Below are positions 17,793-45,737 of a stretch of 64,000 bases of DNA, in pieces. The DNA is from Marinobacter sp. LQ44. Lineage in GTDB: Bacteria > Pseudomonadota > Gammaproteobacteria > Pseudomonadales > Oleiphilaceae. Numbering within the stretch: the stretch's first letter is position 1; each line of letters begins with the position of its first letter. The notes under the pieces are model-generated. The model did no database searches and had not been told where the DNA came from. It was given only the letters and a program-made list of their open reading frames with translations. The position numbers and the translations under genes are program-made. The stretch lies in contig NZ_CP014754.1 of NCBI RefSeq assembly GCF_001447155.2, positions 2,232,001 through 2,296,000 of the forward strand, written 5' to 3'.

Positions 17793-19070
17793 TTAACTTG
17801 CCCTGAACTCGGGGACAGGGATGCCGGTTCGTACTTTGGTCAGATCCATCAACCTCAGCTCATTGTGCAGATAGGCGTTGGGTAAGGCCAGGCTTGCCAG
17901 CGGTGAAGCCGCATTACGCCAGCTTTGCATCTTGATGAACTTAAACGGCGGGCGATAGCCCAGCTGTTTCAGCCTCCGATGCAACCGGCCCGGCTTCTTC
18001 CACTGCTTGAGCTGGATGCAGCGCAGGCGCCGCCTTAACCAACTCATCACCTGCTTCAGCACCCTCGCGCAGTTCGCCACCCGGAAGTAGTTGGCAAAGC
18101 CCCGTAGCACCGGATTCAGCTCGCGGATAATCGCCGCAAGCCCGATGCCCCGGTTACGCTTTGTCAGCGCTTTCAGCTTCTGCTTGAGTTTCACCACCTT
18201 CTTGTCCTGGATGCGGGTGTAGTTCGTGTAGATCACCACGCCCAGGAACTTTACCCCCTCATCGCTGTGGGCGATGTGGGTCTTGGTGACGTTCACCGTC
18301 AGCTTCAGCTCTTCTTCCAGATAGCGTTGGGCCACCCGTAACGCATTCTCCGCGCCCGCTCGTGAGCCGCACAGGATCAGGATGTCGTCCGCGTAGCGGA
18401 CGATCCGGTGCCCCCGCGCTTTCATGAACTGGTCGAAGGCGTCCAGGTAGGCGTTTGCGATCAGCGGACTGATCACGCCACCCTGAGGGCTTCCCAGTTC
18501 CGTCTCTTCGAGGTGGTATCCCACCATCACGCCACTTTCCAGGAACTGGCGCAGCAGTGACAGGACACTGCCGTCCGTGATCCGTTGGCGGAACTGGCGG
18601 ATGATCAGGTCATGGTTGAGCGTGTCGAAGCATTTCGACAGGTCCATGTCCACAACCCAGTCACGCCGGTATCGGCGGATAAACAACTCCGCCTTGCCGA
18701 TGGCGTGGTGACCACTGCGTCCCGGACGATACCCGTAACTCGACGGGTGGAAATCCGGCTCGAAGATCGGTTCGATAATACGGCGCAGCGCCTGTTGCAC
18801 AACCCGGTCCCGAACCGTCGGAATGCCCAGCAGACGCTCACCGCCGTCATCCTTGGCGATGGCTACGCGTCTGACTGGCTGCGCCCGATAGCGCTTTTCC
18901 TTCAGCTCGAGCAACAGGCACGACAGCTCCACCTCCAGATTCGCCTCAAACCCACTCAGGCTCTGCCCATCGATTCCGGCCGCGCCCTTGTTGCGTTTGA
19001 TGTGTCTGAAGGCTTCATACAGGCGCTGTTTTGACAGCAATTGCCCGTACAGACTGTAGTATTTCCTCAT
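17793..19070 (-). CDS. ltrA: group II intron reverse transcriptase/maturase (intron B)
   Basis: A 425-residue intron-encoded protein. RT blocks: AFRHIKRNKGAAGIDG, GERLLGIPTVRDRVVQQAL, SSYGYRPGRSGHHAI, DMDLSKCFDTLNHDL, GSPQGGVISPLIANAYLD and active site YADD (HRIVRYADDILI), followed by maturase domain X (PVLRGFANYFRVANCARVL) and a short basic tail. No HNH endonuclease domain is present. It is only distantly related to the intron A protein, so the two introns arrived independently. The frame is intact. Confidence 0.88.
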   Translation of the reverse strand: MRKYYSLYGQLLSKQRLYEAFRHIKRNKGAAGIDGQSLSGFEANLEVELSCLLLELKEKRYRAQPVRRVAIAKDDGGERLLGIPTVRDRVVQQALRRIIEPIFEPDFHPSSYGYRPGRSGHHAIGKAELFIRRYRRDWVVDMDLSKCFDTLNHDLIIRQFRQRITDGSVLSLLRQFLESGVMVGYHLEETELGSPQGGVISPLIANAYLDAFDQFMKARGHRIVRYADDILILCGSRAGAENALRVAQRYLEEELKLTVNVTKTHIAHSDEGVKFLGVVIYTNYTRIQDKKVVKLKQKLKALTKRNRGIGLAAIIRELNPVLRGFANYFRVANCARVLKQVMSWLRRRLRCIQLKQWKKPGRLHRRLKQLGYRPPFKFIKMQSWRNAASPLASLALPNAYLHNELRLMDLTKVRTGIPVPEFRAS

Positions 19071-19753
19071 GCCTGCTCATCTCCGCGATGACGGCTTCGA
19101 GGGTTGGCTTGGCTGCCGGTGTGTTTCAAGCGATCCGCCCGGGTGCTAGCGCTCAGGCAATCTGCCGCCACGGTATCGCTCTACTCCCTTGTTCGGAGAA
19201 CACCAGAGCCACTGCGTTCCCGCAGTACCCCAGTGCACGTCCCTGCCCCGTCGGGCAGCTTGTGAACACAGCGTCCACCTCTCACTCGTCGTCCGTCATT
19301 CTCGTTAATGACTTCCGCCCTTCGCATCCGATCAGAGCTTTTGACCCTGACCGGTCCGCTGAACCTCCGTCAGCGGTCATTCCGGTTTTATCCTCCACGC
19401 TGTTACCAGGCTTCTCAGGCCGGAACTTCCTCACTACTACGGCTTCATCTGCCACCTCGCACCAACTGCGGCCTCGGCTTTCACCTTGCGCCACAGCCTC
19501 CGACAACGCCGGATTCGGTGTCAGGCTTCCCCGGTTACTGCACCGGCTCCCTGTTAACGATGCCACCCTCAAACACAGCCCAGGTCTGACTGAGTATCGG
19601 GCGTCGCGTTATTTCGCACGCTGGCCCACCTGACCTGCCGAAGCAGGTTCACTTGCGTTGTGTACCGTTAACTTCCTATGGCTTCCTTCAGACCCCACCG
19701 TTGGCCAGTGACGCCCTTGCCAGTCGGATTGTCTTCCCCTCAGTCGGGGTGAC

Positions 19754-19866
19754 GCCATCTTCTTTCAGATGGCCGGGTTTGCCGGCTTCGCCGGGCAAAC
19801 AAAAAAGGGCCGCCAAAGCGACCCACAAAACAGTAGCAAAATAAGACTTCCCGAACCGAGCCGACA
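19754..19866. other. short intergenic stretch with two hairpins
   Basis: GCCATCT-TCTTTC-AGATGGC (19754-19773) is a perfect seven-base stem at the edge of intron B and may be its stem-loop target or part of its 5' end. A second GC-rich hairpin, GTTTGCC-GGC-TTC-GCC-G-GGCAAAC, follows on the plus strand and is succeeded by six A, so it does not form a normal terminator in either direction. The remaining 60 bases show nothing recognisable. Confidence 0.5.
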
Positions 19867-19962
19867 GGCCGTGGGGCGGGGCGGTCTTTTCCGCCGGAAA
19901 AAAGATGTCTGAGCGAAGCGAGTTGTTTTTTCCAGAGGAAAAGACCTCCCCGCTCCGCGGCC
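19867..19962. repeat. long inverted repeat H1 (GAGCGAAGCGAG family)
   Basis: Arms 19867-19892 and 19937-19962 pair over 26 bases with one mismatch and two G-T pairs; the left arm is G-rich (GGCCGTGGGGCGGGGCGG...). Inside, GGAAAAAA and TTTTTTCC form a second stem around the core TGTCTGAGCGAAGCGAGTT (19906-19924), which contains the GCGAAGC mini-hairpin. It starts 13 bases beyond the decarboxylase stop codon and might terminate transcription, but it is far longer than a terminator. Same core as H2 and H3, different arms. Confidence 0.8.
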
Positions 19963-19974
19963 AGACTCCCAAGC

Positions 19975-21150
19975 TTAGATGTAGTAGTCCTTCAACGGAG
20001 GAAAGCCATTAAACTCCACCGCACTGTAAGTGGTGGTATAAGCCCCGGTCGACAACCAGTACATCCGGTCACCAATCGCCAGATTCAACGGCAACGGGTA
20101 CTTATGGTGCTCGTACATAATATCGGCACTGTCACAAGTCGGCCCCGCAATCACACAGTCCTCGCCCTCACCGGTCTTCTCGGTCCAGATCGGAAACTTG
20201 ATCGACTCATCCAGCGTCTCAATCAGCCCCGAGAACTTACCCACATCGGTAAACACCCATCGGTGCAACGCGGTACGGGACTTCCGGGAAATCAGCACCA
20301 CCTCACTCACCAGCACACCGGCGTTAGAGATCAACGAACGGCCCGGCTCAATAATGATCTCCGGCAGATCGTCACCAAAATCTTCCCGCAGGAAACGGGC
20401 AATTTCCTCCGCATACACCGCCAGCTCATTGGTGCGGGCAATGTAGTTGGCCGGGAAACCACCGCCCATGTTGATCATTTTCAGCTCAATGCCGTCTTCT
20501 TCCTTCAGACGCTCGAAAATCACCTTCACCTTATTCAGGGCCGCGTCCCAGGCGCCGATTTCCCGCTGCTGGGAACCCACGTGGAACGACACGCCGTAAG
20601 GCACCAGGCCCAGATCACGGGCCAGAATCAGCAGATCCATGGCCATATCCGTCTGGCAACCAAACTTGCGAGACAGCGGCCAGTCGGCAGTCAGGGTGCC
20701 TTCGGTCAGGATGCGCACATACACCTTCGAGCCCGGCGCCGCCTTGGCAATGTTACGCAGGTCCGCCTCGGAATCGGTGGCGTACAGGCGCACACCCTTC
20801 TCGTAAAAGGTGCGGATGTCCTTCGCCTTCTTGATGGTGTTGCCGTAGCTGATGCGATCGCCGGTGACACCCAGCCCCATAACCTTGTCCAGTTCATACA
20901 CCGACGCGATATCGAAACAGGCACCTTTATCCCGCAGCATGGTCAGAATCTGCGGCGCCGGGTTGGCTTTAACCGCATAGTAAACCTTGGCGTACGGGAA
21001 CCCTTCCACCAGCTCCTCGTACTGACGGTCAATGGTCTGGGTATCGATGACCACAAACGGGGTTTCCTTGCCGTCGGCAAAGTCCTTGATCCGCTTGAAG
21101 GTCTCGGCGCTGTAGTAATCGGCGATATCAGCGTTGGGGGTCTGGTTCAT
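19975..21150 (-). CDS. type III PLP-dependent ornithine/lysine decarboxylase
   Basis: Fold-type III decarboxylase (alanine-racemase-like barrel) making putrescine or cadaverine from ornithine or lysine. The 391-residue protein has the PLP lysine in YYAVKANP (Lys61), HVGSQQ near 190, the phosphate-binding EPGRS region near 265, and the active-site cysteine in GPTCDSAD near 337. The frame is open upstream, but the chosen ATG starts the family-like sequence and GGAGGG precedes it. Eukaryotic-type ornithine decarboxylases and lysine/ornithine enzymes share these motifs, so substrate is uncertain. It follows, in the same direction, an ATP-grasp gene from which it is separated by a strong terminator. 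Confidence 0.85.
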   Translation of the reverse strand: MNQTPNADIADYYSAETFKRIKDFADGKETPFVVIDTQTIDRQYEELVEGFPYAKVYYAVKANPAPQILTMLRDKGACFDIASVYELDKVMGLGVTGDRISYGNTIKKAKDIRTFYEKGVRLYATDSEADLRNIAKAAPGSKVYVRILTEGTLTADWPLSRKFGCQTDMAMDLLILARDLGLVPYGVSFHVGSQQREIGAWDAALNKVKVIFERLKEEDGIELKMINMGGGFPANYIARTNELAVYAEEIARFLREDFGDDLPEIIIEPGRSLISNAGVLVSEVVLISRKSRTALHRWVFTDVGKFSGLIETLDESIKFPIWTEKTGEGEDCVIAGPTCDSADIMYEHHKYPLPLNLAIGDRMYWLSTGAYTTTYSAVEFNGFPPLKDYYI

Positions 21151-21184
21151 GGGTGGTGTGTCCCTCCACAGGGTAAACGGGCAT

Positions 21185-21217
21185 AAAAAAGGGTAGCACA
21201 GACCCGCTGTGCTACCC
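21185..21217 (-). terminator. Rho-independent terminator of the ATP-grasp gene
   Basis: On the minus strand an 11-base perfect stem GGGTAGCACAG/CTGTGCTACCC with a five-base loop is followed by TTTTTT. It lies about 100 bases after the ATP-grasp stop and 35 bases before the decarboxylase start. Confidence 0.9.
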
Positions 21218-21319
21218 GTGAATGGCGCGATCATCAGGCTTTTTTCTGACCACCGCAAATGCGCATATATACCCATAAATCCGGCAACGGAAGCCGGACC
21301 TCTGGCACAGCATTCTTTA

Positions 21320-22138
21320 TCACACCGCCACCGGCCAAAGCGGCGTCGGCTCTGTCGGCCCGTCCGGATCCTGGGGGCAGCTCTGCCTGTTCAGGTAATC
21401 CAGAATGGCCTCTTTCAAATCACTACCCAGACCCAGCCCCTGGTTACCGAACAGCCGATTAAACTCAAGCACATACGGGTAGCCATCGACCAGCGCTATA
21501 TCGAAACCGGCGTGGTCCACACCCAGCTCCCTGGCCAGCCGCAAAGCCAGCCCGGTGACCACCTCCGGTACCGGGCTGGTATCAATTTTCCCACCCCGGG
21601 CCACGTTGTTGTAGAAGCCCTGTTCCGCCTGGGTTCGCCAATAGGCCGTCAGCACCCGGTCACCCACCACCACAACCCGCACATCACGGTCGATCGGCAG
21701 GTATTCCTGGGCATAAAGCACGTGGGTACGTTCGCAGTACCGGCGCCAGTCGTCACGATTTTCGATCAGCCACACCCCTTCACCCATACTGGCCTTGGGC
21801 AGTTTTGCCACAAAGGGCAGGGCCATGGTGTCCCAGATCAGATCCCGCTCCTGGGGGCCGTTGGCTTCGATCAGCGTCCAGGGGGTGTGTTCCGGTGCTA
21901 CGGTCTGGAACGCACGGGTCATCTCCACCTTGTCGTGACCAATGCGATAGCTGGCCTCGCTTGGAAACACGCGGCGCTTGAGACCGTGGACCAGGGCATT
22001 CAACTGCCAGTATTCCGGGAACAGCACCCAGTCGGCATCTCGCAGCAGGTCCTTGTGTCTCAGAAACTGCTCCGGCTTGAGTACTGTGGTGTCAGGAAAG
22101 CCAAGGGTACGGAAGATATCAAAGGAAACCAGGTGCAT
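21320..22138 (-). CDS. ATP-grasp (RimK-like) family protein
   Basis: A 272-residue protein with ATP-grasp features: PFVAKLPKASMGEGVWLIE (nucleotide-binding lysine and small loop), LYAQEYLPIDRDVRVVVVGDRV (the EYL.. D.R ... segment), and metal-binding FDIALVDGYPYVLEFNR near the C-terminus. These match RimK/glutathione-synthetase-like ligases that join a carboxylate to an amine or thiol. The ATG chosen starts at MHLVSFDIF; the open frame upstream has no family character and no clear ribosome site precedes either. The neighbour makes a polyamine precursor, so an amine ligase role is possible but speculative. Confidence 0.75.
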   Translation of the reverse strand: MHLVSFDIFRTLGFPDTTVLKPEQFLRHKDLLRDADWVLFPEYWQLNALVHGLKRRVFPSEASYRIGHDKVEMTRAFQTVAPEHTPWTLIEANGPQERDLIWDTMALPFVAKLPKASMGEGVWLIENRDDWRRYCERTHVLYAQEYLPIDRDVRVVVVGDRVLTAYWRTQAEQGFYNNVARGGKIDTSPVPEVVTGLALRLARELGVDHAGFDIALVDGYPYVLEFNRLFGNQGLGLGSDLKEAILDYLNRQSCPQDPDGPTEPTPLWPVAV

Positions 22139-22249
22139 GGTGTCAGCGGCACTCCAGATAGGTTGCGCGCATTTTATACAGAATCCGGTTCCGGACAAGC
22201 TACCTCAGGAAAAATAATTGACCGGCGTCATGGACAGAGCGAATATAAA

Positions 22250-22264
22250 TGATAATGCTTTTCA
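22250..22264. promoter_or_regulatory. Fur-box-like site
   Basis: TGATAAT-G-CTTTTCA matches the 7-1-7 Fur consensus TGATAATnATTATCA at 12 of 14 positions. It lies 21 bases upstream of the start codon of the small periplasmic protein, close to likely promoter elements (TTGACC at 22218 and an AT-rich TATAAA at 22244). Iron repression is inferred. Confidence 0.6.
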
Positions 22265-22285
22265 TTAACTAAAAAGGAGCTACCT

Positions 22286-22657
22286 ATGACCAAGAAACTG
22301 ATGTTTGCCACTCTTACCTGCGCCGCCTTCGCATTCAGCGCCAACGCCCACGCCAGTGACGTCGAACACTTCAAGGGCAAGCCCTCTGACACCCTGGAAC
22401 AGGCGGTTAGCAACTTCTCGGAATACAACAACAAGTTGGAAAAGGTGTTGGCCGGAGACATGACCCCCGAGGCCATGAACGAAGTCCACGAACTGACCTA
22501 TACCCTGGAAAACGCTCTGGGCAAGATCAGTGAAGAACTGCGCGAACTGGCGGATGTGCTGGAAGAAGTTCACGTTGCCTCCGAGCACGCCGATGGCAAC
22601 GCTGTTAAAAAGCACGGGCAGAAGTACCTTGAAGTCAGTCGGGAAGTGATCAAATAA
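22286..22657 (+). CDS. small periplasmic helical protein (DUF6746-like)
   Basis: A 123-residue precursor with signal peptide MTKKLMFATLTCAAFAFSANAHA (cleavage near residue 23-24) and a mature all-helical, acidic protein carrying several His and Met residues. The pattern SDVEHFKGKPSDTLEQAV, FSEYNNKLEKVLAG and HELTYTLENALGKI resembles DUF6746, a family that has a cytochrome b562-like helix layout; no CxxCH heme site is present. AAAAGGAG stands seven bases before the ATG. A Fur-like box overlaps its promoter region, suggesting induction when iron is scarce. It converges on hrpB with a 12-base gap. Confidence 0.75.
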   Translation: MTKKLMFATLTCAAFAFSANAHASDVEHFKGKPSDTLEQAVSNFSEYNNKLEKVLAGDMTPEAMNEVHELTYTLENALGKISEELRELADVLEEVHVASEHADGNAVKKHGQKYLEVSREVIK

Positions 22658-22668
22658 CAGATTGCATG

Positions 22669-25143
22669 TCAGCGAGCGGGGCGTTTTTTCGTTCCCTGCT
22701 GAGCCTGGGCGGTGAGTGGGTCGTCCGGCCAGGGGTGTTTGGGATAGCGGCCACGCATGTCCTTGCGCACCTCCGGATAGGCGTTCTGCCAGAAACTGGC
22801 CAGGTCGGCAGTGACCGCTAAAGGCCGCTGGGCCGGTGACAAAAGATGAATCACCACCGGTACCCGACCACCAGCCACTGTCGGCGTTTCCGTCCAGCCA
22901 AACAACGCCTGCAACTTGACCGCCAGCACCGGGCCGTTGTCGGCGCTGTAATCCAGGGTGACGTTCTGGCCGGTGGGAATGGTCAGAGCTCGGGGCGCGA
23001 GTTCGTCCAGTTGCTGCTGTTGCGGGTAGTCCAGCAGGGCATGCAGGGCCTGAACCAGGTTGATGCCCGCCAGGTCAGACCAGCGCTTCATACCAGCCAT
23101 AAACGGCGCTAACCAGGTCTCCAGAGTGTCCAGCAAGAACTGGTCGCTGACCTCTGGCCAGTCGCCGGGGAATTTCTCCGCCAGCAATCGCACCCGGGCA
23201 ACCCACTGGCGGGCCGTATCACTCCAGGGCAGGCTGTCCAGACCTTTACGGCGCACCGCGTCCAGCAGGCCCTGCTGAACCAGTTCCGGGGCAACCTGAT
23301 TCAGCGGCTTCTCCGCCAGCACCAGTGCCCCGAGCTTGCGGACCCGGCGGGCGACGATGGTGCCGCGTTTGTCGTCCCACAGGGCTTCCTCACGTTCTTC
23401 GATATGGTTAGCCAGGTCCTGTTCAAGGTCCGTGAGATCGACCGGTGCCGCCAGATAAATCGTCGCTTCCCGGGCCTTACCATCCAGATCCGCCGTCACC
23501 AGCCAGTCCTGCCGAGCCAGGGGATCGTCCTCCCGCAACACCGCACCCTTGCCGTTACTCAACTGATACCGGGGCATGGCCCCTGAGCGGCGGCGGGCAA
23601 TACGGTCCGGATAGGCCTGGGCCAACACCCGCCCAACGTCGGTTTCCGAGGGTAAATCCTGTGCCAGCGGGCCACGGCACAGTCGTTTTGCCGCCTGCCG
23701 AACCGCCTGCAACCGTGCGGTGTCCAGGCCGCGATGACCGCGTTCGCCCCGCAGCACCCGAATCCGTTCATGCAGATCCGCGCCGGAGCCTGGCCCGAGC
23801 AAGTCCCGCTCCTCCAACAGCGCGGCCAGCTCGGCCGCCAGCTGGCCCAGCCCCAGGGTACGGCCTTTGATCACCATATGGGCCAGGCGAGGGTGCAGGC
23901 CCAGCTCCCGGGCCGCCTTGCCGTGATCTGTGATGGCTCCCTCGGCATCCAGCAGATCCAGCCACTGCAACAACTCCACCGCCTGCTGCCAGTGCGCATT
24001 CGGCGGGGCATCAATCCAACCCACCTGCTCCGGGGAACGGGCCCCCCACTGGGCCAATTCCAGCACCAGCGGCGCCAGGTCGGCTTCCTGGATTTCCGGC
24101 GGCGTGTAGTCCGCCAACCCGAACTGCTCCGACTCACTCCACAGCCGGTAACACACACCCGGCTCAACCCGACCGGCCCGGCCCTTGCGCTGCTCGGCAG
24201 ACGCCTTTGATACCCGCCCGGTCACAAGGCGTGTCATACCGCTGTTGGGATCAAACACCGCCCGGCGCTGCTGACCGGCATCAATCACCACCCGCACGCC
24301 TTCAATAGTCAGACTGGTCTCAGCAATCGCTGTGGCCAGCACAATTTTGCGGGCACCGTCCTGTGCCGGCGAAATCGCCCGCTCCTGTTCTTCGGCTTTG
24401 AGATTGCCATACAACGGCGCCAGCACCACGTTAGCCGGCAACTGACCCGCCAGCTGCTGCGCCACCCGGCGAATCTCCCCGGCCCCGGGCAGAAATACCA
24501 GCATGGAACCGGTCTGCGCGCCCAAGGCCTCCTGAATCACCGCCACTATCTGGTCCACCATCCGGGCATTACGGGGCAAAGGGCGGTACAACACCTCCAC
24601 CGGAAACGCCCGGCCCTCGCTGGTGATTACCGGTACATTCCCCAGCACCCGGGCAATGGGCGCGGTATCCAGGGTGGCCGACATCACCAGCAATCTCAGG
24701 TCTTCCCGCAGGGCCTGCTGGCTTTCTCGCACCAGGGCCAATCCCAGATCGGCTTGCAAGGAGCGCTCGTGAAACTCATCAAACAGCACAGCGGCATAGT
24801 CTTCCAGCATCGGGTCGTTCTGAATCAAGCGCGTCAGAATGCCCTCGGTCACCACCTCAATCTTTGTGCTGCCTGACACCTTCGTATCGAGGCGAGTCCG
24901 ATACCCCACCGTTTGCCCCGGCGCCTCACCTAACTGCTTCGCCATATACCGGGCCGCCGACCTGGCCGCCAGCCGCCTGGGCTCCAACATCAGGATCTTC
25001 CGGTTGTCCCGCCATGGGGCATCCAACAGAGCCAGCGGGACCCTTGTCGTTTTACCGGCACCCGGTGGTGCCTGCAGCAAGGCTGTGGTGCCTTGGTTCA
25101 GGGTTTGTTTTAGCTCTGGGAGTATGTGTTCTATTGGGAGCAT
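22669..25143 (-). CDS. hrpB: ATP-dependent RNA helicase HrpB
   Basis: DEAH-type RNA helicase, 824 residues, the normal length. N-terminal Walker A QAPPGAGKTTRVP, motif II as DEFHERS (HrpB has DEFH instead of DEAH), motif III SATLD, motif VI QRKGRAGR, then HA2 and the HrpB-specific C-terminal domain ending in a basic tail (TKKRPAR). The frame is intact. The ATG lies 42 bases from inverted repeat H2, which therefore occupies its promoter region. Physiological role in bacteria is poorly defined. Confidence 0.93.
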   Translation of the reverse strand: MLPIEHILPELKQTLNQGTTALLQAPPGAGKTTRVPLALLDAPWRDNRKILMLEPRRLAARSAARYMAKQLGEAPGQTVGYRTRLDTKVSGSTKIEVVTEGILTRLIQNDPMLEDYAAVLFDEFHERSLQADLGLALVRESQQALREDLRLLVMSATLDTAPIARVLGNVPVITSEGRAFPVEVLYRPLPRNARMVDQIVAVIQEALGAQTGSMLVFLPGAGEIRRVAQQLAGQLPANVVLAPLYGNLKAEEQERAISPAQDGARKIVLATAIAETSLTIEGVRVVIDAGQQRRAVFDPNSGMTRLVTGRVSKASAEQRKGRAGRVEPGVCYRLWSESEQFGLADYTPPEIQEADLAPLVLELAQWGARSPEQVGWIDAPPNAHWQQAVELLQWLDLLDAEGAITDHGKAARELGLHPRLAHMVIKGRTLGLGQLAAELAALLEERDLLGPGSGADLHERIRVLRGERGHRGLDTARLQAVRQAAKRLCRGPLAQDLPSETDVGRVLAQAYPDRIARRRSGAMPRYQLSNGKGAVLREDDPLARQDWLVTADLDGKAREATIYLAAPVDLTDLEQDLANHIEEREEALWDDKRGTIVARRVRKLGALVLAEKPLNQVAPELVQQGLLDAVRRKGLDSLPWSDTARQWVARVRLLAEKFPGDWPEVSDQFLLDTLETWLAPFMAGMKRWSDLAGINLVQALHALLDYPQQQQLDELAPRALTIPTGQNVTLDYSADNGPVLAVKLQALFGWTETPTVAGGRVPVVIHLLSPAQRPLAVTADLASFWQNAYPEVRKDMRGRYPKHPWPDDPLTAQAQQGTKKRPAR

Positions 25144-25185
25144 GGGGTGTGGTTGGGTTTAGCCTTGGAGTTTTGGGGGTGGCGC

Positions 25186-25268
25186 GGGGGTGTTTTGGTT
25201 TTTTTGGCCGAAAAAGAACTCGCTTCGCTCAGACACCTTTATTCGGTCAAAAAAACCAAAACACCCCC
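25186..25268. repeat. long inverted repeat H2 (GAGCGAAGCGAG family, reverse)
   Basis: Arms 25186-25212 and 25242-25268 pair over 27 bases with one G-T pair; left arm GGGGGTGTTTTGG.... The core lies at 25217-25235 on the minus strand and is identical to H1 (TGTCTGAGCGAAGCGAGTT), with a short inner stem CCGAA/TTCGG-type. It is 42 bases upstream of hrpB. Confidence 0.82.
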
Positions 25269-25394
25269 ACACCCTGCGTAACTTTAAGGGTATATCCAGA
25301 GGTTACCATGGTCGTACTTGGGTTAAGCCGCTTATGCCGTCAAGCTCACCCAGCAAATTATCTTTTTCAGCGGAACCGCTGTGGTCAGCTAGAG

Positions 25395-25483
25395 CGGGGT
25401 GGTGGGGTATTTTTTTCCGCCGGAAATGAATGTCTGAGCGCAGCGAGTTTCATTTCCAAGGCAAAAAATACCCCACCACCCCG
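25395..25483. repeat. long inverted repeat H3 (GAGCGAAGCGAG family, forward)
   Basis: Outer arms 25395-25415 and 25463-25483 are a perfect 21-base match (CGGGGTGGTGGGG...). Inner arms GGAAATGAA (25422) and TTCATTTCC (25449) are also perfect. Core TGTCTGAGCGCAGCGAGTT (25431-25449) differs from H1/H2 by one base, which keeps a GNA loop in the GCGNAGC mini-hairpin. It ends 35 bases past the MFS stop codon and is 126 bases from H2, in the opposite orientation. Confidence 0.82.
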
Positions 25484-25517
25484 ATCAATCCCCCACAACC
25501 CGCCGTCTGGGGCCGAA

Positions 25518-26720
25518 TCAAGACCGCGAACGCCACAAGTCAGCCCGGGGCACAAAGAACGCAAACAAAAGCCCAAACGCCAGCGCCGCCACCCCAATAC
25601 CGAAGGCAGACCCCAGGGTACCGCCCGCATCCAGCCATTGTTTGGTGAGCCACGGCCCAACCATCTGGGTGAAACCGTAAAGTGCCACCATCGCCGCCGA
25701 CAACCGGGGCCCCTGGTGAGGATGCAACGCCCGCCCGATACGCTGAGTCAGCAGCACCGTACCCAGGAACGTGCTGCCTACCAGGGCTGCACACAGCACC
25801 AACCCCACGGCTCCCGGCCAGACTACTGCCGCCAGTACCCCTGCCAGCTGGATCAGGAAATTCAACCTCAATGCCGGCAGATCCCCCATCAGGGCCCCCA
25901 ACTTGTTCCAGAGCCAGGGTGCGGGAATGGTAAACAGGGCTACGATCACCCAGGTGCCGTCCAGTAGCCCGTGGCCCTGAGGCAAGGTCAACTTGGCCAG
26001 CAGCGGCAGGAAAGTCATGGGCAGGATGTACCCCAGGCCAGCCCCGGCATAGGACAGGAACAATGGAATACTCGCGCGATCCAGTAACGGGGTGTTGCTG
26101 ACGACCTGCCCGGAATCGTCGTGCTGGCGCACCGGTACCTCCAACCTGCGCAACTGCAGGGCGCCCCACCAGGCAAGCGGTATCGACAACAACGCAGCCG
26201 GCCACCAGCGTTCAGCCCCCTCCAGCCGCGTTGCAGATCCGGTCACCAGTCCACTGGACACCAGCAGGCCGATGCCCACCCCGATGTAGACCAGGCCGCT
26301 GAGCGAGGCCCTGTTGCGCAACACCAGCCACTCCAGTATCAACGCGGGTGCCTGCACGAACACCACGCCGTTGGCCACGCCGTTCAGCCAGCGGCTTGCG
26401 GATATGACAGTGAGGTTGTCGGTCTGGGTTATGACCAGTGTGGTGACCACATGGATCGCCAGGAACAGCGGCAGCATGACACGGATCTGGTCAATCCGAT
26501 GCCAGCGAATGGCCAGCATGGCGCCCATCAGGTACCCAAGATAGTTCCAGGTGGCGACGGCAGCGCCATCTGCTGCGCTGAATTGGCCGTCGGCAACCAG
26601 ATAGGGCAACAGCGGGGTGTAAATAAACCGGCCGAGGCCATGCACCACCAGTAGCACCAGGGCGCCGGCGGTCAGAACGGTAAACAGCTGTCTTGGGTCA
26701 GCAGAGTGCGAGTTGGTCAT
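25518..26720 (-). CDS. MFS transporter, YbfB/YjiJ family
   Basis: A 400-residue major facilitator with about twelve helices. The start, TVLTAGALVLLVVHGLGRFIYTPLLPYL, and the following WNYLGYLMGAMLA match the YbfB/YjiJ group. Substrate unknown. A good sigma-70 promoter lies 43 bases upstream, and inverted repeat H3 lies just past the stop. Monocistronic by appearance: the next minus-strand gene starts beyond H3. Confidence 0.82.
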   Translation of the reverse strand: MTNSHSADPRQLFTVLTAGALVLLVVHGLGRFIYTPLLPYLVADGQFSAADGAAVATWNYLGYLMGAMLAIRWHRIDQIRVMLPLFLAIHVVTTLVITQTDNLTVISASRWLNGVANGVVFVQAPALILEWLVLRNRASLSGLVYIGVGIGLLVSSGLVTGSATRLEGAERWWPAALLSIPLAWWGALQLRRLEVPVRQHDDSGQVVSNTPLLDRASIPLFLSYAGAGLGYILPMTFLPLLAKLTLPQGHGLLDGTWVIVALFTIPAPWLWNKLGALMGDLPALRLNFLIQLAGVLAAVVWPGAVGLVLCAALVGSTFLGTVLLTQRIGRALHPHQGPRLSAAMVALYGFTQMVGPWLTKQWLDAGGTLGSAFGIGVAALAFGLLFAFFVPRADLWRSRS

Positions 26721-44903: not shown

Positions 44904-45737
44904 TCAGGGGATGATTTCCACAGGCAAGTCGCGGGTGGGCACGGCATCGTCACACTCGGGATTACGAACCGATATTTCAACCCGCCGGTTCACCGCCCGG
45001 TTCTCCGCGCTATCATTGGCCACCAACGGCCGGGTTTCGGCACGGCCGGCCGCCACAACCCGCTCAGCCGGTACCTGGCGGTTCAGCACCAGTTCGTGGA
45101 CGACAGATACCGCCCGGGCAGCAGACAAATCCCAGTTTGAGCGATACACGCTGCTGGATATGGGCACATCGTCGGTGTGGCCAGACACCACCACATCCCC
45201 GGTACAGGCCGACAGCACGGTAACCACCCGTTCGATGATCGGAATCATACCCGGCATGATGGCGGCATCGCCAGAACGAAAGGTGGCTTCTTCGGAGAAA
45301 CGGATAACCACCTGGTCTTCATCGTAATTGATGTGCAAGGTATCGGAGGCAACTTCGGTTTCCAGCTCCTGGATCAACCGGCTGGCCAAGTCCAGGACAC
45401 CACCGGGAATCTGTCGCGTTTCCGAACGCTCGGTTCGCTCGTCAATGAACTCCGGCTGGTCCTGCAGGTTTTCAGAAGGCTCCGGCAGCGATACGGTATC
45501 GGCTTCAATCAGGGTCAGGGGTGTACCGCCGATGTCTTCGGCCACCACATTGCTGGAACCAAACGCCAGGGACATGGAGTTCGCCATGGCGCGGTACTTC
45601 TCGATATCCATCTCGGCGAACGACAACAGCAGGATAAAAAACGTCAGCAGCAGGGTTGCCAGATCCGCGAAGGTGACAATCCAGTCGGGTGTACGCTTTT
45701 TGAGTGCGTTTTTTTTCAGTGGCCGCGCCGGTTGCAA
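44904..45737 (-). CDS. motB: flagellar stator subunit MotB/PomB-like (OmpA domain)
   Basis: Stator B subunit that anchors the ion channel to peptidoglycan, 277 residues. One N-terminal helix holds the essential channel aspartate in PDWIVTFADLATLLLTFFILL (Asp about residue 25), followed by a plug-like segment and a C-terminal OmpA domain with SGHTDDVPISS and the RVVAAGRAETRP helix. The likely start is TTG, with GGGAGG eight bases upstream, inside the end of motA; the gap to motA is three bases. Whether it is H+ or Na+ driven cannot be decided from sequence. Confidence 0.87.
   Translation of the reverse strand: MQPARPLKKNALKKRTPDWIVTFADLATLLLTFFILLLSFAEMDIEKYRAMANSMSLAFGSSNVVAEDIGGTPLTLIEADTVSLPEPSENLQDQPEFIDERTERSETRQIPGGVLDLASRLIQELETEVASDTLHINYDEDQVVIRFSEEATFRSGDAAIMPGMIPIIERVVTVLSACTGDVVVSGHTDDVPISSSVYRSNWDLSAARAVSVVHELVLNRQVPAERVVAAGRAETRPLVANDSAENRAVNRRVEISVRNPECDDAVPTRDLPVEIIP

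What the first reader, a model, noticed from the sequence alone, without database searches (positions are those of the whole stretch)
19867..25483. Long inverted repeats with a conserved GAGCGAAGCGAG core and covarying arms
H1 (19867), H2 (25186) and H3 (25395) share the core TGTCTGAGCGAAGCGAGTT (one base differs in H3), but the 21-27 bp arms are unrelated between copies, and each pairs almost perfectly with itself. The inner stems also differ in sequence yet stay complementary (GGAAAAAA/TTTTTTCC, GGAAATGAA/TTCATTTCC, CCGAA/TTCGG). The core contains GCGAAGC, known as an unusually stable DNA mini-hairpin, and the H3 change keeps the GNA loop. Such covariation means selection on structure, or a mechanism that copies one flank in inverted form around a mobile core. 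I do not recognise the family.
Basis: seen in the sequence. Interest (0 to 1): 0.78.

Follow-up and report, generated by a model that had tools for sequence, protein, structure and literature searches.

The report
Widespread bacterial hairpins with conserved caps
The three hairpins are copies of an apparently unnamed element found across distant bacteria, whose tip sequence is nearly fixed while its stems change but stay complementary, often as head-to-head pairs a little over 200 bases apart; what reads it is unknown.

Summary
The own genome (Marinobacter, inferred) has 19 copies of the core with at most one mismatch, all with long complementary arms. Stems covary: 70.9% of cells paired in 127 copies against 41.3% shuffled. 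Mismatches inside stems lean to G.T and G.A on the strand reading TGTYTGAGCGNAGCGAGTT, also where both neighbouring genes are read on the other strand, so that strand folds under selection and the neighbours' mRNA is not the molecule. In unselected lists 55 of 60 close neighbours are divergent pairs. Tested features of terminators, REP, attC and Rfam families were not met, and Y1 transposases do not track it. Two sites kept in a close relative and missing here are deletion scars, so 'one flank copied around a mobile core' is not supported. Best reading, moderate confidence: a dispersed non-coding, often two-hairpin unit acting as folded single-stranded DNA, spread or kept in trans by an unidentified factor.

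The parts
19867..19962 (+). H1: hairpin, core TGTCTGAGCGAAGCGAGTT at 19906-19924 on +; single copy, antisense to the 3' end of the decarboxylase gene
25181..25273 (-). H2: hairpin, core at 25217-25235 on -; left half of a divergent pair
25392..25486 (+). H3: hairpin, core TGTCTGAGCGCAGCGAGTT at 25431-25449 on +; right half of the pair
25274..25391 (.). spacer of the H2/H3 pair (core starts 214 bp apart); no promoter-like match
19975..21150 (-). neighbour gene: PLP-dependent ornithine/arginine-type decarboxylase, whose 3' end lies beside H1 (not part of the element)
19807..19824 (-). terminator-like hairpin with T6 beyond H1 on the decarboxylase strand (not part of the element; one such match is expected by chance in that stretch)

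Best explanation
H1-H3 are copies of a dispersed non-coding structured element found in many bacterial phyla. Its conserved information lies in the cap (TGTYTGAGCGNAGCGAGTT, which I draw as a GNA triloop on two G-C pairs, two sheared G.A pairs and T-rich mismatches) and in internal loops; the stems only need to pair. Shown: the fold of one strand is under selection; it is not the neighbours' mRNA; close copies are nearly always divergent; units have multiplied within some genomes; copies are lost by deletion between arms; one orthologous unit is found with its two hairpins swapped. Inferred: the folded molecule is single-stranded DNA (or an extruded cruciform arm) of the core strand, recognised through cap and loops by a trans-acting protein that copies, moves or keeps the unit, as REP and attC hairpins are read as single strands. 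That protein was not identified.
For: Covariation of the inner stem on 64 ungapped copies (58.7% of cells paired against 40.1% shuffled, 0 of 500) and on 127 model-aligned copies (70.9% against 41.3%; covariation score 0.691 against 0.211, best slide 0.381). Own arms above the 95% level of swapped arms in 130/135, 33/38 and 99/110 copies. Mismatches on the core strand, G.T:A.C 74:20, 15:7, 56:25 and G.A:C.T 36:11, 16:2, 60:12. With both neighbours read on the other strand G.T:A.C is still 24:6 (Marinobacter) and 22:2 (others). No promoter signal. Divergent pairs in 35 of 36, 10 of 11 and 10 of 13 close neighbours in unselected lists. Amplified units. Deletion scars.
Against: DNA against RNA is not decided: G.T pairs and purine mismatches suit both, and the promoter scans have little power. 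In the non-Marinobacter set between convergent genes the G.T bias is absent (14:14). No insertion with a target duplication was seen, and every difference from G065 that I looked at was a loss or a swap. No protein partner was found: none recurs beside the copies apart from common ABC ATPases and LysR regulators. Copies are related by descent, so counts overstate independence. At the decarboxylase site 12 of 30 loci lack the element, so it is dispensable there.
Confidence: 0.45

Rival explanations
1. A structured non-coding RNA made from the core strand by its own promoter (in pairs outwards from the spacer), acting in trans or spreading through an RNA intermediate.
For: The strand-specific fold with purine-rich internal loops suits RNA. 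The selected strand is independent of the neighbours' direction, as for an independent transcript.
Against: No promoter-like signal above controls upstream of the core or in the spacers; no Rfam family reached its cut-off in the window stretch or in 21 further loci, save a group II intron in the window. Promoters of other types are not covered by these scans.
Confidence: 0.25
2. A chromosome-structure or gene-boundary element: hairpins or cruciforms between gene ends bound by a general DNA-binding protein, with no mobility of their own, spread only by duplication and gene conversion.
For: Settings between divergent genes are rare: 2 of 115, 3 of 30 and 7 of 90 classified copies (no null computed). 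Units in the 12-kb cluster look duplicated or converted. The differences from G065 that I examined are losses and swaps.
Against: Patchy presence over distant phyla with one cap sequence and repeated loss at one site fit a core chromosome function poorly.
Confidence: 0.15
3. One reading: a mobile core around which one flank is copied in inverted form (template switching), so that complementary arms are a mutational by-product.
For: G045 differs from G000 by whole blocks in both arms at the decarboxylase site, still complementary. Quasi-palindrome correction is a known process (recalled).
Against: Strand bias of mismatches; missing sites are deletion scars; the same architecture with internal loops recurs in other phyla.
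Confidence: 0.07
4. Ordinary intrinsic terminators or mRNA-stabilising 3' hairpins.
For: Stable hairpins near gene ends, with T-runs inside the arms in the window.
Against: None of H1-H3 scores as terminator-like. Orientation to tandem genes is not fixed: 29 against 31 (Marinobacter), 35 against 26 (pan set). The bias holds where the neighbours' mRNA is the other strand. A 19-nt conserved cap is not a terminator feature.
Confidence: 0.05

Closest known systems
TM_ECO (PIT) intrastrand triplex motif, Holder et al. 2015, PMC4666352 (abstract, passages and sections 15, 16, 18 seen)
   Same: Intergenic, many copies, no strand bias, pairs in inverted orientation, losses by deletion that leave hairpin-forming parts, no known function or carrier.
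   Different: Its pattern CCCTCNCCC-GGGNGAGGG-GGGNGAGGG is absent from H1-H3; according to the paper its stems are conserved and its loops are not, the reverse of here. It lies near some copies elsewhere (L141, L167, L221, L284).
REP / BIME / REPIN elements with TnpA_REP (RAYT); Di Nocera et al. 2013, PMC3733652 (abstract in a listing, passages)
   Same: Dispersed extragenic palindromes, inverted dimers, no coding capacity.
   Different: No GTAG in H1-H3 or their flanks; the CGTC tag was not tested. Stems here are about 30 bp and differ between copies while the cap is shared between phyla. Y1 transposases are absent from element-rich genomes.
Integron attC sites; attC-like OTH-22-1 motif, PMC8632094 (passages)
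   Same: Recalled: folded single strand, structure kept while stem sequence varies.
   Different: No RYYYAAC or GTTRRRY in H1-H3 and flanks; conserved bases lie at the tip, not at the foot; pairs are divergent, not arrays of one direction.
ERIC and other stem-loop families, PMC2267715 (passages)
   Same: Long intergenic stem-loops repeated in genomes.
   Different: Clustered there by sequence within genomes; here only cap and loops are shared between distant taxa.

Membership tests
REP/REPIN (TnpA_REP) | GTAG tetranucleotide at the foot of the hairpin | tested here: not met
   no GTAG in 123-126 bp around H1, H2, H3 on either strand; other genomes not scanned
REP/REPIN (TnpA_REP) | dependence on a Y1 (RAYT) transposase in the genome | tested here: not met
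   PF01797 in 62 of 124 genomes of the genus; G001, G008, G017, G029, G030 with 23, 17, 35, 29, 27 copies have none, while element-free G012, G013, G037, G101, G120 have it; past dependence not excluded
integron attC | RYYYAAC ... GTTRRRY boxes at the foot | tested here: not met
   neither found in H1-H3 with flanks, either strand
integron attC | recombination by IntI in vivo | not testable with these tools
   needs an assay
intrinsic terminator | GC-rich hairpin with short loop directly followed by a T-run | tested here: not met
   H1-H3 not listed by the scans; one separate match at 19824-19807 (-), as many as expected by chance
TM_ECO triplex motif | CCCTCNCCC-N3-6-GGGNGAGGG start of the motif | tested here: not met
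   regex on H1-H3, both strands
Rfam families | match at the family's gathering score | tested here: not met
   in window 19500-26000 only a group II intron reaches it; H2 and H3 give below-cut-off matches to microRNA-precursor models (best E 3.5e-6, 33.4 bits against 500), as long hairpins may; nothing at the cut-off in 21 other loci
conserved single-strand structure (RNA or ssDNA) | compensatory changes in stems beyond shuffles | tested here: met
   the slide by -1 is slightly higher (62.8%), since copies differ by one base in register; the measures that count pairs or types do not discriminate
mobile element (MITE-like) | insertion with target-site duplication | tested here: inconclusive
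   no insertion site found; the missing sites studied were deletions

The most novel reading that the evidence does not exclude
A bacteria-wide, so far unnamed class of single-strand-folding DNA element: a two-hairpin unit with fixed divergent geometry (about 210-240 bp), recognised only through caps and internal loops while its stems drift, and carried by an undiscovered trans-acting machinery shared between phyla.
Probability: 0.3. Interest if true: 0.9.

Novelty: new variant of a known kind. Interest (0 to 1): 0.72.

Why it matters
If one cap sequence is kept between Proteobacteria, Bacteroidota, Firmicutes and candidate phyla while the stems drift, some widely shared protein or process probably reads it.

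Tried and rejected
Rejected: terminators; Rfam families; attC boxes, the GTAG tag and the TM motif (H1-H3 only); dependence on Y1 transposases; an autonomous gene beside the copies (784 ORFs from the loci; the only cluster over more than 4 loci, 10 loci, is ABC ATPases by their Walker motif; one of 4 loci looks like LysR regulators; the other 4-locus cluster was not identified); a phage origin (66 stretches in the viral collection; of 30 distinct copies with enough flank 15 had complementary arms).

Led nowhere: ten paper searches named no such element. They cover open PMC papers only, and a sequence is found only if printed in those letters. The MAFFT alignment of the decarboxylase-site copies did not respect the pairing and was not used for counts. 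Not tested: replication-strand bias; covariation of the parts other than the inner stem; the CGTC tag of REPs.

Corrected while checking: a first neighbour count of 65 divergent of 70 included regions that I had fetched because they showed divergent pairs; the unselected lists give 55 of 60, and these are quoted. Those lists are themselves capped (first places of each genome) and were typed in.

Full report
OBSERVATION. H1 (19867-19962), H2 (25181-25273) and H3 (25392-25486) are real and far from chance. The cores of H1 and H3 lie on the + strand and that of H2 on the - strand, so H2 and H3 form a divergent pair, 214 bp from core start to core start. H1 lies beside the 3' end of a PLP-dependent decarboxylase gene, before a separate terminator-like hairpin on that strand. 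H3 lies beyond the 3' end of an MFS transporter gene and H2 before the start of hrpB. DNA parameters give much the same hairpins.

OWN GENOME. The 4.44-Mb genome has 13 exact and 6 one-mismatch copies of the 19-mer and two hits with three mismatches. All 19 have long complementary arms, the latter two do not. There are five (-)(+) pairs with core starts 214-242 bp apart; four of them and one single copy lie within about 12 kb. There, units resemble each other, for example 384 nt at 96% in inverted orientation and 226-267 nt at 82-85% (a third copy 65%). The genus is inferred to be Marinobacter: contigs titled Marinobacter alexandrii (L253) and Marinobacter sp. MAG (L197) match these loci at 78% over 2.3 kb and 89% over 1.4 kb.

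DISTRIBUTION. Genus: 114 of 124 genomes, the reversed-pattern control being zero in every row. Gammaproteobacteria: 39 of 369 genomes, 34 of 272 genera. There the reversed control rings in six genomes, most in G195 (9 against 33) and as often as the pattern in G230 (2 and 2); I think because the centre of the core is a mirror repeat. Pseudomonadota with a covariance model: 15 of 299 genomes, 13 of 153 genera, own genome and two of its genus included. The element is widespread and patchy.

ARCHITECTURE, as read by eye: an outer stem, an asymmetric internal loop, an inner stem of about 8 bp, and the cap. In other taxa there is often a foot stem with loops such as GAGGAGCGCAG/CGAGCACCGCAG, a small GNA-type hairpin on the 3' side, and beyond it a TTACTTTC...GAAAGTAA hairpin. 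Outside amplified clusters the stems differ from copy to copy.

SELECTION ON STRUCTURE. Own arms beat arms swapped between copies in 130 of 135, 33 of 38 and 99 of 110 copies. On 64 ungapped copies, not fitted to a structure, 58.7% of cells pair against 40.1% shuffled (0 of 500); the slide by -1 scores slightly higher (62.8%) since copies differ by one base in register, and the measures that count pairs or types do not discriminate. On 127 model-aligned copies (118 distinct) it is 70.9% against 41.3%, best slide 54.8%; that alignment leans to the structure. Downstream of the decarboxylase, 18 of the 30 loci fetched (from 52 genomes with the gene among 61 searched) keep the element: 15 with the regular core, two with TGTCCGAGC, one inverted (L080). 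The other 12 lack it, L065 with long arms but no core. Inner stems there read GGAAAAAA, GGGAATCA, GGGAACGA or GGGCACAA, each with its complement.

WHICH STRAND. Single mismatches inside stems are G.T more than A.C and G.A more than C.T on the core strand in all three sets. By gene context G.T:A.C is 24:6 and 22:2 where both neighbours are read on the other strand, 13:3 and 21:8 where on the same strand, 36:8 and 14:14 between convergent genes (Marinobacter; others). The last figure is against the rule. So the neighbours' mRNA is not the selected molecule. Promoter scans show nothing above controls, which leaves ssDNA, or an RNA whose promoter they miss.

TWO-HAIRPIN UNIT. In lists not chosen for it, neighbours within 700 bp are (-+) in 35 of 36 (genus), 10 of 11 (class) and 10 of 13 (other phyla), with median spacing 223, 207 and 236; the rest are two (++), two (--) and one (+-). 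Spacers differ in sequence.

GAIN AND LOSS. Two pair sites of relative G065 are scars in G000 that join the left arm of one hairpin to the right arm of the other at short matches. G079 lacks the hairpin that G019 has, and G044 keeps one arm. Between acyl-CoA dehydrogenase and thiolase genes the two hairpins are swapped between G000 and G065, by inversion or by replacement with a sister unit. G195 carries units of about 575 bp, 79-86% alike, at three sites, and a fourth alike over 323 bp at 92%. No insertion with a target duplication was seen.

CONTEXT. Copies between divergent genes are few (2 of 115, 3 of 30, 7 of 90), and orientation to tandem genes is not fixed (29 to 31, 11 to 5, 35 to 26). 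No special protein family recurs beside them, and Y1 transposases do not follow them.

WHAT IT IS. I take it as a structured dispersed repeat whose fold is read on one strand, most likely as DNA. GNA caps and sheared G.A pairs are known from very stable DNA mini-hairpins (recalled; such papers appear only in the listing). It works like REP or attC hairpins in being a single-strand structure, but the features of theirs that I tested are not met. The nearest published behaviour is that of TM_ECO, another sequence.

LIMITS. Copies share descent; gene calls are longest-ORF guesses; taxa come from record titles; the literature library is partial; N at the GNA position is biased by the search patterns.

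Noticed in passing
window 17793-19070 and 19542-19711 (-): A group II intron: reverse transcriptase with maturase domain (PF00078, PF08388) and an Rfam group-II-D1D4-3 match (52.5 bits), downstream of the decarboxylase gene and of H1's neighbouring terminator.
   Followed up: partly
L188, L194, L263, L163, L164 (3' of the element): A hairpin of the type TTTTCTTTGGTTACTTTCTTTTGGCGAAGCAAAAGAAAGT follows the element at a similar place, with a composition that could form an intrastrand triplex.
   Followed up: partly
L141, L167, L221, L284: TM_ECO-type CCCTC/GGGAG motifs lie near copies of the element.
   Followed up: no
L273 (Parabacteroides MAG contig), minus strand: Five regular cores in one direction in 8 kb, four of them about 800-900 bp apart, with the same inner stem and the same 3' tail in front of different genes, like an array.
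   Followed up: partly
G000:C1:3811977-3824213 (L022): Nine copies (four pairs and one single) within about 12 kb between genes such as an acyl-CoA dehydrogenase and a thiolase; units look duplicated or converted.
   Followed up: partly
L162, L173, L174, L175 (genus): Pairs 538-629 bp apart enclose what looks like one small gene at apparently the same place in four genomes; the gene was not identified by any search.
   Followed up: no
L065 (G081), decarboxylase site: Long complementary arms enclosing other short hairpins and no core.
   Followed up: no
window 45429-45440 (-): A one-mismatch GAGCGAACCGAG that the covariance model does not list as a copy.
   Followed up: partly
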